Shown: positions 3,367 through 25,483 of the stretch, piece by piece | Layout of the letters: the number at the start of each line of letters is the position of its first letter | Numbering within the stretch: the first letter of the stretch is position 1 | NCBI GenBank assembly: GCA_947442255.1 | Contig: CANEVO010000060.1 | Coordinates: 1-25,483, forward strand | DNA from: Opitutia bacterium | Lineage (GTDB): Bacteria > Verrucomicrobiota > Verrucomicrobiae > Opitutales > Opitutaceae | Length of the DNA stretch: 25,483 bases | Direction of reading: 5' to 3' | Notes under the pieces: generated by a model | Told to the model about the DNA's origin: nothing | Database searches by the model: none | Seen by the model: only the letters and a program-made list of their open reading frames with translations | Made by a program: the position numbers and the translations under genes

Positions 3367-3864
3367 ATGCCCTCAAAAAACGAGACTCCCGCTGCAGGCA
3401 CTCCCGGATCGGACCGTGAACTGCTCCTGACCCGCGTGCTCAACGCCCCGCGCGAGAAAGTCTACCGCGCGTGGACCGACCTGCAGCTCATCACGCAGTG
3501 GTTTACGCCGCCTCCCTTTGTGACGGTGCATGCGGAAACGGACGTGCGTCCGGGCGGGGCCAGTCTGGTGGTCATGCGTGGACCGGACGGGACAGAGTAT
3601 CCGAATCGCGGTGTCTACCTCGAAGTCGTGCCCAACGAGCGGCTGGTCTTCACCGATGCCTACACCTGCGCGTGGCAGCCTTCCGAAAAGCCGTTCATGA
3701 CCGTGATCCTCACGTTCGAGGACGCCGGCGACGGCAAGACGCGTTACACGGCCCGCGTGCGGCACTGGACCGTGGACGACCGTGAGGCGCACGAAAAAAT
3801 GGGGTATCATGCGGGCTGGGGCCAGGCGACCGCCCAGCTCGAAGCCCTCGCGCAACGCATTTAA
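3367..3864 (+). CDS. SRPBCC / AHSA1-type START-like domain protein
   Basis: The protein has 165 residues. The sequence RVLNAPREKVYRAWTD, a TQWF block, a GG-S-V beta turn, PNERLVFTDAY and the C-terminal helix GWGQATAQLEALA are classic for the AHSA1 (activator of Hsp90 ATPase homologue 1-like) branch of the START/Bet v1 fold. This is a hydrophobic-pocket fold, often found next to VOC/glyoxalase genes, as here. Ligand and role are unknown. ATG 3367 is chosen because the 10 codons upstream in the frame add nothing conserved. The start is preceded by a pyrimidine-rich CCCATTTTCCC and no Shine-Dalgarno. Confidence 0.88.
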   Translation: MPSKNETPAAGTPGSDRELLLTRVLNAPREKVYRAWTDLQLITQWFTPPPFVTVHAETDVRPGGASLVVMRGPDGTEYPNRGVYLEVVPNERLVFTDAYTCAWQPSEKPFMTVILTFEDAGDGKTRYTARVRHWTVDDREAHEKMGYHAGWGQATAQLEALAQRI

Positions 3865-3891
3865 GGCCGCTCCACGACCACGCCCACTGGC

Positions 3892-9049: not shown

Positions 9050-9918
9050 GAAGCTGTGAAAAAACTCTGTACCGAGGAGGCGCCGGATGTTTAGGGTGGT
9101 AGATGCAGGCGAAAAGAGAGCCGTATCCGAGCAGTGTAACGCAAAAAGAATGGGCGATGGTAAAGCCCCTGTTGCCGAAACCAGGAAGGCTAGGCCGACC
9201 GCCGCGCTACGGCCAGCGGGAGATGGTGAATACGATCGTGCAGGTGGTGAGGAGTGGCTGTACTTGGCGGATGGTGCCAAAGGATTTTCCGCACTGGCGG
9301 CTGGTCTACTATTATTTTGCGAAGTGGCAGGCGCTGGGCGTGTGGCAGCGGCTCAATGACACGCTGCGTGATCGCGCCCGGCTCCAAGCGGGTAAAAAAA
9401 GCTCCGACCGCTGCGATCATCGACAGCCAGAGCATTAAAATGGTTAGCCAGCCCGGAGAGCGCGGCTTCGATGCGGGCAAGAAGATCTGCGGACGAAAAG
9501 GGCATCTGTTGGTCGATACCCTCGGGCTGATTTTGGGTTGCGTGGTGCATCAGGCCGGACTGCAAGACCGCGACGGAGCGAAACTGCTGGAGCCTTTTCT
9601 GCTCCGATATGGCTGGCTGAAGGCCGTTTTTGTGGACGGCGGTTACGCCGGACGCTCCCCGACTGGGTGGCTGCGTTGCCTCGACATTGCAAACTCACCG
9701 CCCACGTCGTGCAAAAAATCCACCCCCATCGCTTTGTGGCGTTGCCCAAGCGCTGGATCGTCGAACGCACCTTCGCTTGGCTCGGCAACTTCCGACGTCT
9801 CTCCAAGGACTATGAAGTAAAAACCAGCCACTCCGAGGCCATGATCTATCTTGCTGCTTCCGCCCTCATGCTTCGCCGACTCACCAAATCTTGAGCATGA
9901 GAGTTTTTTCACAGCTTC
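9050..9918 (+). mobile_element. IS5-family insertion sequence, complete (869 bp), TTA target duplication
   Basis: The terminal inverted repeats are perfect over 19 bases: GAAGCTGTGAAAAAACTCT at 9050-9068 and its complement at 9900-9918. The trinucleotide TTA flanks both sides (9047-9049 and 9919-9921), fitting the short T-N-A duplications of some IS5 subgroups. The element carries one transposase locus in the plus direction, split by frameshifts. Perfect inverted repeats and an intact target duplication indicate a fairly recent insertion. Confidence 0.92.
9103..9894 (+). pseudogene. IS5-family transposase split over two frames (two frameshifts)
   Basis: The product is assembled from three pieces. 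Frame 1 from 9103 encodes the N-terminal domain (TQKEWAMVKPLLPKPGRLGR, then CTWRMVPKDFPHW) and reads to an A7 run at 9394-9400. A +1 shift there enters frame 2, which encodes the first catalytic Asp (AAIIDSQSIKM) and the second (VFVDGGYAG). Near 9650 the text returns to frame 1 with TLPDWVAALPRHCKLTAHVV and ends with the Glu block RWIVERTFAWLGNFRRLSKD. The first break sits at a slippery A7 and may be the programmed ORFA/ORFB shift of some IS5 subgroups. The second break has no such signal and probably inactivates this copy. Confidence 0.85.
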
Positions 9919-20713: not shown

Positions 20714-21334
20714 TTACCTGGCGGGTAGCCAGGCTTGTGCGGCGGCGATATCCGCGGGGACGAGGGCGTGGCTCGCGGGATGTGACTGCACCGTCACCGT
20801 GGCGCCGCCGGCACGAAACAGCGCGGCCAGGCGGGGCGGGTGATCGAGCGGCACCAGCGGATCGACATTGCCCGAGGAGGTCAGGACGGACTTGCCGGTG
20901 AGCGAACCGGGCATTGCGGGTTGATCGAGCACGACCATCGGTCGAAACAAGATGGCGCCGGCGAGCGATTCCGGACGCAGCAGCAACAAGGTGCCGGCGA
21001 TGTTGGCCCCGTTGGAAAACCCGACGGCGAGGAGGCTGCCGGCGGCGACCCCGTAGTGTGCGGTCGCGGCGGCGAGGAAATCCGCGAGCGCGAGGGTGCG
21101 CCGGGTGATTTCGGCCGGATCGAAGACGCCTTCGCGCAACCGGGAGAAGAACCGCAAAGCACCGCCTTCGTTCACGTCGCCGCGCGGACTCAGCAGGGCG
21201 GCGCCGGGCGCGAGCTTGCGGCCCAACCGCAAGAGATCGTGCTCGGTGCCGCCGGTGCCGTGCAGGAGCAACAACGTGGGCGCCCCGGGGTGGGTCGCGG
21301 GCTCGAAAACGTGGTGGTAGGAAAAATTGGGCAT
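20714..21334 (-). CDS. alpha/beta hydrolase (carboxylesterase/phospholipase type)
   Basis: The protein has 206 residues. It has the serine hydrolase fold with oxyanion block LLLLHGTGGTEHDLL, nucleophile elbow GFSNG (Ser107), acid SSGNVDPLVPL (Asp158) and His189 in SHPASHALV. Length and order match the small carboxylesterase/phospholipase family (PF02230-like, MhqD/YpfH-like), which cleaves short acyl esters. Start 21334 (MPNFSYHHVF) is chosen because the remaining frame up to 21886 is an antisense shadow of rpiB. It is 85 bases upstream of the aldo/keto reductase and 82 bases downstream of rpiB, all minus strand, so one operon is plausible. Confidence 0.9.
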   Translation of the reverse strand: MPNFSYHHVFEPATHPGAPTLLLLHGTGGTEHDLLRLGRKLAPGAALLSPRGDVNEGGALRFFSRLREGVFDPAEITRRTLALADFLAAATAHYGVAAGSLLAVGFSNGANIAGTLLLLRPESLAGAILFRPMVVLDQPAMPGSLTGKSVLTSSGNVDPLVPLDHPPRLAALFRAGGATVTVQSHPASHALVPADIAAAQAWLPAR

Positions 21335-22742: not shown

Positions 22743-23748
22743 TCAATTCGAATTGGGGTTTGATATAAGGAGCTGATGGAAACGTTTGGCGGGGGAGGCG
22801 TCTTGGAGGATTTTACGGGGGCGTTCGTTGAGCATGTCCTGGATCGAGCGGAGCTTTTGGTAAGAGACGGTGGCGAGATCGAGGCCACGGGGCAGGTAGT
22901 GACGGAGGCGGTCGTTCTGGCTCTCGCAGGTGGCGCGTTCCCAGGGGCTGTGGGCGTGGCAGAAGTAGACCTTGAGTTGGAGGTTGGCCGCGAGTTGGGC
23001 GTGTTCGGCCATTTCCTTGCCTTGGTCGTAGGTCAGTGAGAGGCGTAGTTGGGCGGGCAGGTCGGCGAGTTTGCGCTCGAATGCTGCGCGCACGCTCGTG
23101 GCGTCTTTTTGCGGCAGGTGACAGAGGAGCATGAAGCGGGTGGTGCGTTCGACGAGGACGCCGACGGCGGAGGCGTTGCCGGGCCCCATGATGAGGTCGC
23201 CTTCAAAATGGCCGGGAGTGGCACGGGTTTGGACCTCGGGCGGGCGGTGGTCGATCAAGACCATGTCCTTGAGTTTTCCCTGGGTGGCCAGGGTGCCACG
23301 GGGGTGGGCTTTGCGCTTGGTGTGGTGGCGGCGCAGGTAGGCGACCAGCTCGCGTTTGAGCGCCCCGCGCGCGACCACGTAAACGTAGCGGTAAATCGAT
23401 TCGTGCGAGGTCTGCATGGCCGGATCGGCAGGGTGCGTGCGACGCAGGGTGCGGGCAACCTCTTCGGGCGACCAGCCGCGGCGCAGGGCCGCGCGTAGGG
23501 CGGCGTGCAGCGGGGGATGGGCCGTGATCGCGCAAAAATCGCGCCCGGGCCGCGCCTGCGCGGGCGGTGGCGCTCCGCTGGGCGGCGAGCGCCCGGTAGT
23601 GCTCGCGACCGCCATTGAGCGTGAGTTCTCGGCTGAGCGTGCCGGGCGACCGGCCGAGGCGCTCCGCGATCAAGTTTTGCGGGTCACCCCGGCGCACGGC
23701 GCCCTCCAGTTCGATGCGGTCGGCTAGCGTCAGGTGCGTGTATCCCAT
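22743..23748 (-). pseudogene. IS30-family transposase with a frameshift
   Basis: From ATG 23748, MGYTHLTLADRIELEGAVRR and LIAERLGRSPGTLSRELTLN form the IS30 N-terminal helix-turn-helix. Within an arginine/alanine-rich stretch near 23540-23570 the coherent text moves +1 into another frame: ALRRGWSPEEVARTLRR, TSHESIYRYVYV, then the DDE integrase core with GHFEGDLIMGPGNASAVGVL (first Asp), LTYDQGKEMAEH (second Asp) and SPWERATCESQNDRLRHYLP (Glu). The end is ASPAKRFHQLL. All catalytic residues are kept, so the shift is the only visible defect. The element is probably about 1.07 kb, but its inverted repeats could not be fixed. Confidence 0.85.
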
Positions 23749-23839: not shown

Positions 23840-24022
23840 TGGTCTCGTGCTCATCTATATTAGTCCGTTCAGGTTCAGCTTCGCTTTCATTATACGTCGA
23901 ATCGTGCATTCGACCTCATCCTTGAACCCGCCATCCAATCAAATAGTTTTTCATGGTTTTGACTTGGACAGATGATGGCAATGCGGCCCCCAGTGTCACT
24001 CTCCAAGACACCGCCCCACTCC
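23840..24022. other. non-coding, lower-GC stretch with a small palindrome
   Basis: No gene is recognised. A 7-bp palindrome lies at 23896-23914 (GTCGAAT, loop CGTGC, ATTCGAC). A minus-strand frame (24102 to 23890) contains the plausible text SDTGGRIAIICPSQNHEKLF, but it is short, starts in the repeat and has no family match I know. Confidence 0.4.
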
Positions 24023-24050
24023 GGGCCGGACCGCCAAGCCGGTCCGTCCC
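24023..24050. repeat. palindrome of the CCAAGC-loop type, second copy
   Basis: The stem has 3 outer pairs, one mismatch and 7 inner pairs (CGGACCG, 24027-24033, with CGGTCCG, 24040-24046), closing the same CCAAGC loop as the hairpin at 23784. The loops are identical while the stems differ but remain complementary, as expected for members of a palindrome family. Confidence 0.7.
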
Positions 24051-24070
24051 TCCGCTTGGGATTGCCAACC

Positions 24071-24152
24071 ACCACCGCAGTCATCACATCAACCCGAGCC
24101 AAAGACTAACACTCCACCTGGCCCATTTTTCGGGACCCGCTCAACGCCAGCC
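24071..24152 (+). repeat. 82-bp direct repeat, copy 1
   Basis: This copy lies upstream of the PH-like/SHOCT gene. It matches 24822-24903 at about 76 of 82 positions. It contains the constant parts AGTCATCACATCAACCCGAG, CCAAAGACTAACA and TTTTCGGGACCCGCTCAA. It ends 40 bases before the gene's start codon. Confidence 0.9.
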
Positions 24153-24192
24153 CATCGTATCTGACCGCGGTCGTTCGGCAAAAAACCCAAAT

Positions 24193-24798
24193 ATGACTGA
24201 CACTATTCAAAGCGAAGAGCCACGCGTCGAAAAGGCGCTCGAATATATTAAATCCATGCTCATTCCCGGCGAAATGCTTGAAGCATGGGCTATTCAGCGC
24301 CGTCTATTCGCGCTGACTCACCGGCGCGCGCTTATCGCCACGACAAGCGGACGATTTATTGGTATTCAAAGAGGTCTTTTCGGAGGATTTACTCCAGTCG
24401 ATATTCGCTGGCAGGATCTAACGGATGCGAAAGTTAGAGTGGGGATTTTCGGAGCCAGCGTTTTCATGTCGTCATACAATAGTTCGGACTTGGCTGTCGC
24501 ATCTTCTATTAATGGTCTTCTTAGTTTTACTGGCCTTCGCAAGCAGCAAGCCCAAAAGGTTTATCGTATTTGTCAGACACAGGAGCAGTCTTGGCGCGAG
24601 AAGCGTCGTATTCGTGAGCTTGACGAACTACGCGCTCAATCCGGAGGAGTTCAGATTTCGACCGGTCTTCAGTCGGCGCAGCAAGGAGCTTCCGATTCTG
24701 TATCGAGACTTCAGCAGGCCAAGCAGATGTTGGATTCTAAGCTGATTACCGACTCAGAATATGAAGCGATTAAAGCCAGAATTATAAACGGTATCTAA
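24193..24798 (+). CDS. PH-like domain plus C-terminal SHOCT domain protein
   Basis: The protein has 201 residues. Residues 25-130 look like a bacterial PH-like domain: PGEMLEAWAIQRRLFALTHR, RALIATTSGRFIGIQRGLFG, then DIRWQDLTDAKVRVGIFG. This fold is often found in small membrane- or stress-associated proteins. A charged linker (EKRRIRELDELRAQ) leads to a SHOCT domain at 168-200 (VSRLQQAKQMLDSKLITDSE, then YEAIKARII), a short two-helix module usually at the end of oligomeric or membrane-linked proteins. No membrane segment is obvious, so it is likely cytosolic. Codon use is less GC-biased than in neighbours, suggesting transfer. The gene stands alone between two 82-bp direct repeats. Precise function is unknown. 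Confidence 0.82.
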   Translation: MTDTIQSEEPRVEKALEYIKSMLIPGEMLEAWAIQRRLFALTHRRALIATTSGRFIGIQRGLFGGFTPVDIRWQDLTDAKVRVGIFGASVFMSSYNSSDLAVASSINGLLSFTGLRKQQAQKVYRICQTQEQSWREKRRIRELDELRAQSGGVQISTGLQSAQQGASDSVSRLQQAKQMLDSKLITDSEYEAIKARIINGI

Positions 24799-24821
24799 GA
24801 AGAAAACCGAGCCGAACCACC

Positions 24822-24903
24822 ACCACCGAAGTCATCACATCAACCCGAGCCAAAGACTAACAATCCACCTAGCCCAGTTTTCGGGACCCGCTCAAGCCCA
24901 GCC
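24822..24903 (+). repeat. 82-bp direct repeat, copy 2
   Basis: This copy begins 24 bases after the PH-like/SHOCT stop. It is in the same orientation as copy 1, with about six substitutions. Its end at 24903 coincides with the point where a PEGA-like coding remnant begins, which suggests a recombination boundary. Confidence 0.9.
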
Positions 24904-25036
24904 ACCTTCCAATTGCCGCGTAAAGGTGCGTTAATTGTTACCATCGCAAAAGACGGATATGAAACCGCGACCGTAAACGTTGTTCCCAAGGTCGCTGGAG
25001 CAGGTGGAGCTGCTATTGCAGGTAACATGGTGATGG
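24901..25036 (+). pseudogene. internal fragment of a PEGA-like lipoprotein gene
   Basis: Starting at the edge of repeat copy 2, the frame reads ATFQLPRKGALIVTIAKDGY, ETATVNVVPKVAGAGG and AAIAGNMVM. This is the style of a PEGA-type beta domain in verrucomicrobial and proteobacterial lipoproteins, in which a LPRKG...V-KDGYE-TVTV segment precedes a glycine-rich membrane-like stretch. No start codon or signal peptide is present, and the text ends where the IS4 transposase fragment begins on the other strand. Both ends of the gene are therefore lost. Confidence 0.55.
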
Positions 25037-25049
25037 CACAGCTGTCTGA

Positions 25050-25295
25050 TCAGAAGCCATTGATCTCCAGTCGACTAGGAATATCGACTATGGTGTTCGT
25101 TGTATAAACTTTGGCAAACAGCTCTGCGAGAGGCACTTTCTCCAGTGCGGAAATCGAGACAACTTGCAGAACTTCGTGAAGGCTGTGCGACAAGGCAAGT
25201 TCTTGTCTGGTGATCGCGACCGGCAAGTACGCGCAGAGCGCGGTCCAGATTTGGACGGCGACGCCGTTGGGATGATTCGAGAAGAATCCCCGTGA
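25050..25295 (-). pseudogene. IS4-family transposase, C-terminal fragment
   Basis: A minus-strand frame from about 25295 to TGA 25050-25052 reads FFSNHPNGVAVQIWTALCAY, LPVAITRQELALSHSLHEVL, QVVSISALEKVPLAELFAK and ends RLEINGF. This matches the C-terminus of IS4-family transposases (F-S-N-VQIW-A-CAYLLVAI, LQ-LS-EK-P, LFDF-like end). The upstream part is missing: a stop lies just above it, and the IS3 fragment follows within about 25 bases. Only about 81 residues remain, so it is inactive. Confidence 0.75.
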
Positions 25296-25318: not shown

Positions 25319-25483
25319 CTACGATGAGAGACCAGGCGGGTTGTGGGTTACTGCTGAGGGAGTGGTTGGGGTTGGGAGCTTGGCCAGAAGTTCGGCGCGA
25401 TATTCCGCCGGCGTGCGCTGCTGGATCGAGCTGTGCGGCCGGCTCGTGTTGTAGTCGTCGCGGAAATTCCGCGCGACGCATTG
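25319..25483 (-). CDS. IS3-family transposase (OrfB), C-terminal end, cut by window edge
   Basis: Reading leftward from the window edge, the frame gives NFRDDYNTSRPHSSIQQRTP then AEYRAELLAKLP and stops at TAG 25319-25321. YNTxRPHSSxxxxTPAEY is the conserved C-terminal block of IS3-family integrase-type transposases. The protein continues beyond the window. It abuts the IS4 remnant, so this element probably inserted into or next to the IS4 copy. The terminal inverted repeat could not be fixed. Confidence 0.85.
   Translation of the reverse strand, partial: QCVARNFRDDYNTSRPHSSIQQRTPAEYRAELLAKLPTPTTPSAVTHNPPGLSS

What the first reader, a model, noticed from the sequence alone, without database searches (positions are those of the whole stretch)
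24071..24903. PH-like/SHOCT gene bracketed by 82-bp direct repeats: a possible mobile gene cassette
Two copies of an 82-bp sequence in the same orientation, about 93% identical, flank exactly one gene with short spacers (40 and 23 bases). The repeat-to-repeat unit is 751 bp. The gene is less GC-rich than its neighbours and sits among broken mobile elements. Copy 2 ends precisely where a truncated PEGA-like frame begins, as expected if the unit was inserted or exchanged by recombination at the repeat. The layout resembles an integron cassette, but no canonical attC core sites are visible, so the repeat could be a different kind of recombination site.
Basis: partly seen in the sequence, partly recalled or inferred. 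Interest (0 to 1): 0.72.

Follow-up and report, generated by a model that had tools for sequence, protein, structure and literature searches.

The report
Gene between two insertion-sequence stubs
The two matching repeats on either side of a small bacterial gene are broken-off right ends of a common jumping gene (an IS3-type insertion sequence), so this is ordinary mobile-DNA debris around an acquired gene and not a new kind of gene cassette.

Summary
An 85-bp direct repeat (24068-24152 and 24819-24903, 93% identical, 751 bp apart) brackets one PH/SHOCT gene (24193-24798), and copy 2 stops where a truncated PEGA-type frame begins. The cassette reading fails. The repeat is the right end of an IS3-family insertion sequence (called IS-A here): the last codons of its orfB plus the terminal inverted repeat, ending at 24143 and 24894. 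Matches occur in 21 of 252 genomes of one family. No attC-like fold was found, and no integron integrase passed the curated cut-off in the 6 related genomes tested. What remains of the mobility idea: L003 carries the same gene fused to the same 76-bp IS-A end at the same joint (93.8% over 709 bp). Its downstream flank is different, and upstream lies the right end of a sister IS. So the gene plus one IS end has moved or been re-joined as a block: by recombination between IS copies, decay of an IS-bracketed unit, or one-ended IS insertion. These routes were not separated. New example of a known kind; low interest.

The parts
24019..24143 (+). Copy 1: solo right end of IS-A (IS3 family), positions 1170-1294 of the 1294-bp reference copy in L069; starts in the GC palindrome near the end of orfB and ends at the terminal CCCGCTCA
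   Evidence: 99.2% to L001; 93.6% to L069; orfB tail SGPDRQAGPSLRLGLPTTTAVITSTRAKD*
24144..24192 (+). 49 bases between IS end and start codon; only the last 8 (ACCCAAAT) are shared with L003
24193..24798 (+). Acquired 201-aa gene: PH-like fold plus C-terminal SHOCT (both below Pfam cut-offs); dN 0.026 and dS 0.140 against the L003 copy
24819..24894 (+). Copy 2: 76-bp solo right end of IS-A (positions 1219-1294); the same gene/IS joint as in L003
24895..25107 (+). Remnant of a PEGA-type protein gene; 5' part missing exactly at the IS-A end; similarity to homologues ends near 25044

Best explanation
The 82/85-bp repeats are two solo right ends of one IS3-family insertion sequence (IS-A, 1294 bp in its reference copy L069). 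They point the same way and bracket a horizontally acquired PH/SHOCT gene in a stretch with several broken IS elements. SHOWN: identity of the repeat as an IS terminus; IS end at 24143 and 24894; no other IS-A match in the window (blastn, E<=1e-3); the same gene-to-IS joint in a second genome with different flanks on both sides. INFERRED: the gene was carried or re-joined as a segment whose right edge was an IS-A terminus. That happened by homologous recombination between dispersed IS-A copies, as the remnant of a compound unit, or by one-ended insertion with IS-A transposase supplied from elsewhere. The segment became joined to a PEGA gene. As it stands it lacks a left end and a transposase and cannot be called an autonomous element.
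For: A pattern scan of genome contigs gave 6 stretches, three of them from Opitutus/Opitutae MAGs. There the repeat follows an IS3-type orfB read by eye (L001), sits at the end of an internally deleted IS (L004), or follows the same gene (L003). L069 holds the full IS with orfA (88 aa) and orfB (310 aa). orfB scores 221.6 bits to NCBIfam transpos_IS3 (cut-off 160) and passes the rve cut-offs; orfA passes the HTH_Tnp_1 cut-off. L068 and L143 align to it end to end at 96% and 87% (their frames were not read). The left and right ends align as inverted repeats. The right end matches 41 times at E<=1e-3 in G001 (40 of 44 candidates scored) and in 21 of 252 family genomes at E<=1e-6 (at most 3 candidates scored per genome). 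Beyond the terminal CTCA the flanks differ from copy to copy. Of 51 right ends compared, 23 had enough upstream sequence to judge: 2 full length, 1 partial (L066), 5 internally deleted with a left end, 15 solo right ends, counting both window copies and L003 (my count). L003 matches window 24185-24893 at 93.8%; upstream it has the right end of a sister IS, IS-B. Elements 71-73% identical to IS-A positions 1-1121 end in IS-B ends in L113 and L093. P0003 carries the 14-residue N-terminal extension that L003 encodes (read by eye), P0002 shares 12 of the 14, P0004 has another upstream context.
Against: No target-site duplication could be seen by eye at IS-A copies with both ends, so the transposition chemistry is unproven, and IS-A has not been seen moving. 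The nine bases after the two window copies are alike in 7 of 9 positions, as in only 4 of 1275 pairs of right-end flanks, the window pair included; simple independent insertion does not explain this. The window's own genome is not held, so copies elsewhere in it could not be counted. Left ends further than the fetched 1.5-4 kb upstream of solo right ends would have been missed.
Confidence: 0.88

Rival explanations
1. Integron-type or other site-specific gene cassette: the repeat is a recombination site used by an integrase.
For: Layout repeat-gene-repeat, one small AT-rich gene.
Against: The repeat is part of an IS3-family IS, coding for its orfB C-terminus. DNA folds of both copies and strands are no better than shuffles (z -0.48 to 0.63). 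For the integron integrase model all 6 genomes tested give weak matches, as do all 14 control genomes, and none passes the cut-off; no positive control was among them and the window's own genome was not tested. A 54% homologue of the gene lies among other genes in L073, with no IS-A match there.
Confidence: 0.02
2. Route within the best explanation: homologous recombination between dispersed IS-A copies, or adjacent deletion starting at an IS end, swapped the flanks; the gene itself was not transposed.
For: IS-A is multicopy (41 matches in G001), and the two window copies share 72 of 76 bases. PMC3189936 (abstract and passages) concludes that most IS801 fragments arose by reorganisation, not one-ended transposition.
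Against: Does not by itself explain why the upstream edge near the start codon recurs in different contexts.
Confidence: 0.4
3. Route within the best explanation: decayed compound transposon; two IS-A copies in the same direction once flanked the gene and have been trimmed to their right ends.
For: Two same-direction ends around one gene. Decay of ISApl1 compound units to one or no copies is described in PMC5821093 (passages).
Against: L003 lacks the upstream IS-A end and shares only the last 8 of the 49 bases before the start codon, so the upstream end in the window was joined separately or was replaced in L003.
Confidence: 0.3
4. Route within the best explanation: a transposase-less passenger unit moved by one-ended insertion; right edge at the IS end, left edge near 24185, IS-A transposase in trans.
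For: The gene plus 76-bp end is joined to two different downstream flanks (window, L003). The gene has at least three different upstream contexts (window; L003/P0002/P0003; P0004, known from protein letters only), in each case changing 8-9 bases before the start codon. One-ended insertion of IS911 (IS3 family) is cited in the reference lists of PMC3031569 and PMC5821093; I did not see that paper.
Against: The left edge shows no IS left-end similarity beyond chance (1219 of 2000 window 60-mers and 549 of 2000 shuffles score as well). No target duplication is visible. Only two loci are known at DNA level; whether P0001-P0005 have the IS-A end downstream is unknown.
Confidence: 0.2

Closest known systems
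IS3-family insertion sequences (orfA/orfB, DDE transposase)
   Same: orfA+orfB, terminal inverted repeats, multicopy, internally deleted derivatives
   Different: In the window only two right ends remain; no target duplication recognised
Compound (composite) transposon decaying to IS stubs
   Same: Gene bracketed by two same-direction pieces of one IS
   Different: No complete IS-A on either side; upstream end not shared by the relative L003
Mobile insertion cassette / MITE
   Same: IS end plus gene without a transposase; MITE-like deleted IS-A copies exist (L004, L011, L042, L056, L058)
   Different: No left end flanks the gene unit
Integron gene cassette
   Same: Repeat-gene-repeat layout only
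   Different: No attC-like structure, no integrase over the cut-off in the 6 genomes tested, repeat is IS-coding sequence

Membership tests
IS3-family IS (source of the repeat) | orfA (HTH) and orfB (rve DDE) upstream of the end | tested here: met
   L069: transpos_IS3 221.6 bits (cut-off 160), HTH_Tnp_1, rve and rve_3
IS3-family IS (source of the repeat) | Imperfect terminal inverted repeats | tested here: met
   L069 left end aligned with the window copy-2 right end, score 45.0 against 16.5-17.0 for the unit's left edge
IS3-family IS (source of the repeat) | Short target-site duplication | tested here: inconclusive
   None seen by eye in flanks of copies with both ends; copies may be old
Integron gene cassette | attC-like folding and core sites | tested here: not met
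   Folds not better than shuffles; no core sites found on reading
Integron gene cassette | Integron integrase in the genome | tested here: inconclusive
   0 of 6 related genomes over the TIGR02249 cut-off; the window's own genome is not held and no positive control was in the set
Mobile insertion cassette | Both IS ends flanking the gene | tested here: not met
   Only right ends in the window; left-edge similarity not above chance
Compound transposon | Two IS copies flanking, at least one with transposase | tested here: not met
   Only 125-bp and 76-bp stubs

The most novel reading that the evidence does not exclude
The 710-bp block (24185-24894: gene plus 76-bp IS3-family right end) is a recurrent one-ended passenger unit with a fixed left edge just before its start codon, moved by an IS3-family transposase in trans, so that one IS terminus suffices to carry a gene between loci.
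Probability: 0.12. Interest if true: 0.4.

Novelty: new member of a known kind. Interest (0 to 1): 0.14.

Why it matters
It removes a candidate new cassette system and gives the repeat a clear identity. It also documents an IS3-family element found in 21 of 252 genomes of one family, with solo right ends and small internally deleted forms. If the one-ended reading held, it would be a natural example of a single IS3-family end carrying a gene; for the IS3 family I saw only a citation of earlier laboratory work on this.

Tried and rejected
attC/integron reading: rejected. Pseudo-left-end at the unit's left edge: looked promising by eye (CCCAAAT against CCCGAAAT) but scored no better than random window 60-mers (1219 of 2000) or shuffles (549 of 2000); the right-end version did no better (1426 and 680 of 2000); dropped. 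GC palindrome as a dispersed REP element: an exact search of 6 genomes gave matches in 5; in the cases whose coordinates I compared they start about 40 bases before an IS-A right-end match, so I take it as IS-internal. Proliferation of right ends alone: not supported; G001 has 41 right-end and 37 left-end matches (different query lengths and E limits), and assemblies break at full copies. Plasmids: no DNA match to 23850-25130; protein matches in 3 records, all under 60% identity. Phages: no protein match. IMG/VR: 0 exact pattern matches and 2 protein relatives at 55% (not followed). PADLOC: no family. NCBIfam: none for the gene product. PDB by sequence: none. Fold of the gene product: mean pLDDT 75, pTM 0.57; no fold search was run.

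Full report
OBSERVATION. The repeat is real: 85 nt, 93% identical, 24068-24152 and 24819-24903, 751 bp apart. Its 30-base core occurs twice in the window with up to 3 mismatches, mean 0.00 in 100 shuffles. One gene lies between the copies (24193-24798); its GC is 48.3% against 64.9% for window positions 1-22500. No whole genome is held for the window, so copy number there is unknown. The related sequences come from Opitutus/Opitutae MAGs, so a verrucomicrobial source is likely (inference).

WHAT THE REPEAT IS. One exact 18-base scan of the genome contigs gave 6 stretches. Three were chance-like (Devosia, a nanoarchaeote, a chloroflexote: only 18 to 26 bases alike). The other three were Opitutus/Opitutae MAGs with 91-99% identity over 75-76 bases. 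In L001 the repeat follows an IS3-type orfB tail (read by eye). In L004 it closes a short internally deleted IS with a left end and orfA start. In L003 it follows the same PH/SHOCT gene. Longer copies were then found. L069 holds the complete element, 1294 bp, with orfA (88 aa) and orfB (310 aa). orfB scores 221.6 bits against the NCBIfam IS3 model (cut-off 160) and hits rve domains; orfA hits HTH_Tnp_1. L068 and L143 align with it end to end at 96% and 87%. The terminal inverted repeats align. I call this element IS-A. The finding's repeat is IS-A positions 1219-1294: the last codons of orfB plus the right terminal repeat. In copy 1 the IS match runs further left, to 24019, positions 1170-1294, reading SGPDRQAGPSLRLGLPTTTAVITSTRAKD*. 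Both copies end at CCCGCTCA (24143, 24894), after which the flanks of other copies differ.

DISTRIBUTION. The end matched in 3 of 3 MAGs behind the Opitutus/Opitutae hits, 41 times in one (40 of 44 candidates scored), and in 21 of 252 genomes of one family at E<=1e-6. A fuller look at 23 genomes chosen from those results found matches in 20 at E<=1e-4; the 3 without had none before either. Among 51 right ends compared, 23 had enough upstream sequence to judge: by my count 2 full length, 1 partial, 5 internally deleted with a left end, 15 solo right ends (both window copies and L003 included; L059 and L067 are probably one locus in two genomes). So a solo right end is common debris of this IS. 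Full copies are under-counted because assemblies break at them. In G001:C26 two right-end modules sit in tandem (L086). In G714:C1 two same-direction ends lie about 3.2 kb apart; the stretch between was not examined.

THE GENE. The 201-aa protein gave 5049 relatives at E<=1e-3 among 5249 candidates, 120 listed. Pfam matches to SHOCT and bPH_3 are below the curated cut-offs; of 3 relatives tested, P0018 passes the bPH_3 cut-off. The AlphaFold model (mean pLDDT 75, pTM 0.57) has seven strands, a long helix and two C-terminal helices, as I would expect for PH plus SHOCT. The gene is rare in the group: 1 of 177 order genomes at E<=1e-15, 5 of 387 phylum genomes at the same limit, and 2 of 252 family genomes at E<=1e-6, one of them only a 35-residue match to the C-terminus. 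These genome sets overlap. A 54% relative in L073 stands among other genes (frames read by eye). Against L003 the gene has dN 0.026 and dS 0.140, so it has probably been kept functional. Its role is unknown; a membrane-associated or oligomerising accessory protein is a guess from the domains.

HOW THE STRUCTURE AROSE. L003 matches window 24185-24893 at 93.8%, including the gene-to-IS joint and the 76-bp end. Both flanks differ. Right: PEGA remnant in the window, other sequence in L003. Left: in the window 49 bases, of which 8 are shared, and then an IS-A right end; in L003 the right end of a sister IS, IS-B. IS-B ends match in 23 of 252 family genomes, and in L113 and L093 they close elements 71-73% identical to IS-A positions 1-1121; in L004 an orfB-like frame was read by eye (an attempted family scan of it failed). 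P0003 carries the N-terminal extension that L003 encodes, P0002 shares 12 of 14 residues, P0004 has a different one. Thus the gene has been joined to at least three left contexts, and gene plus IS-A end to two right contexts. Three routes fit: recombination between IS-A copies, decay of an IS-bracketed compound unit, or one-ended insertion. I cannot separate them; the first two need nothing unusual. The left edge shows no IS left-end likeness beyond chance. PEGA homologues show that the 5' part of that gene is missing at 24895.

ODD POINT. Nine bases after the two window ends are alike in 7 positions (ACGCCAGCC, AGCCCAGCC). Only 4 of 1275 pairs of right-end flanks reach this, the window pair being one of them. 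Both could read as the T/S-P-A codons of PEGA proteins. If not chance, one copy arose by duplication including its flank.

LITERATURE. Six searches. I read passages of PMC3031569 (IS-linked movement, with a rare product type explained by one-ended insertion of IS1; it cites Polard 1994 on IS911, which I saw only as a reference), the abstract and passages of PMC3189936 (most IS801 fragments are ascribed to reorganisation) and passages of PMC5821093 (compound units losing one or both IS copies). The search on Opitutaceae, insertion sequence and transposase listed 2 papers, neither about this element by title. IS-A was not compared with ISfinder, so whether it already has a name is unknown.

VERDICT. 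Observation confirmed; cassette interpretation replaced by IS3-family right ends around an acquired gene. Ordinary in kind, low interest.

Noticed in passing
24144-24152 and 24895-24903: Nine bases beyond the IS terminus are 7 of 9 alike in the two copies and resemble PEGA T/S-P-A codons; only 4 of 1275 flank pairs do so well.
   Followed up: partly
L086:113-367: Two IS-A right-end modules in direct tandem, 130 bp apart, in G001:C26.
   Followed up: partly
L058 (G714:C1:17639-17682 and 20890-20965, both -): Two same-direction IS-A right ends about 3.2 kb apart on one contig, one of them in a MITE-like copy; content between not examined.
   Followed up: no
L004, L011, L042, L056, L058: MITE-like internally deleted IS-A copies with left end, orfA start and right end.
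   Followed up: partly
22743-23748 (-): Transposase-like gene with an rve domain (IS30-like from memory), split into two overlapping frames.
   Followed up: no
25322-25483 (-): C-terminal piece of another IS3-type orfB (rve_3); next to it 25040-25290 (-) looks from memory like a transposase tail, no Pfam match.
   Followed up: partly
9103-9894 (+): IS4/5-type transposase in two frames (DUF4096, DDE_Tnp_1).
   Followed up: no
L060:402-820 and 3455-3873: A 419-bp direct repeat, 91% identical, near an IS-A right end in G721.
   Followed up: no
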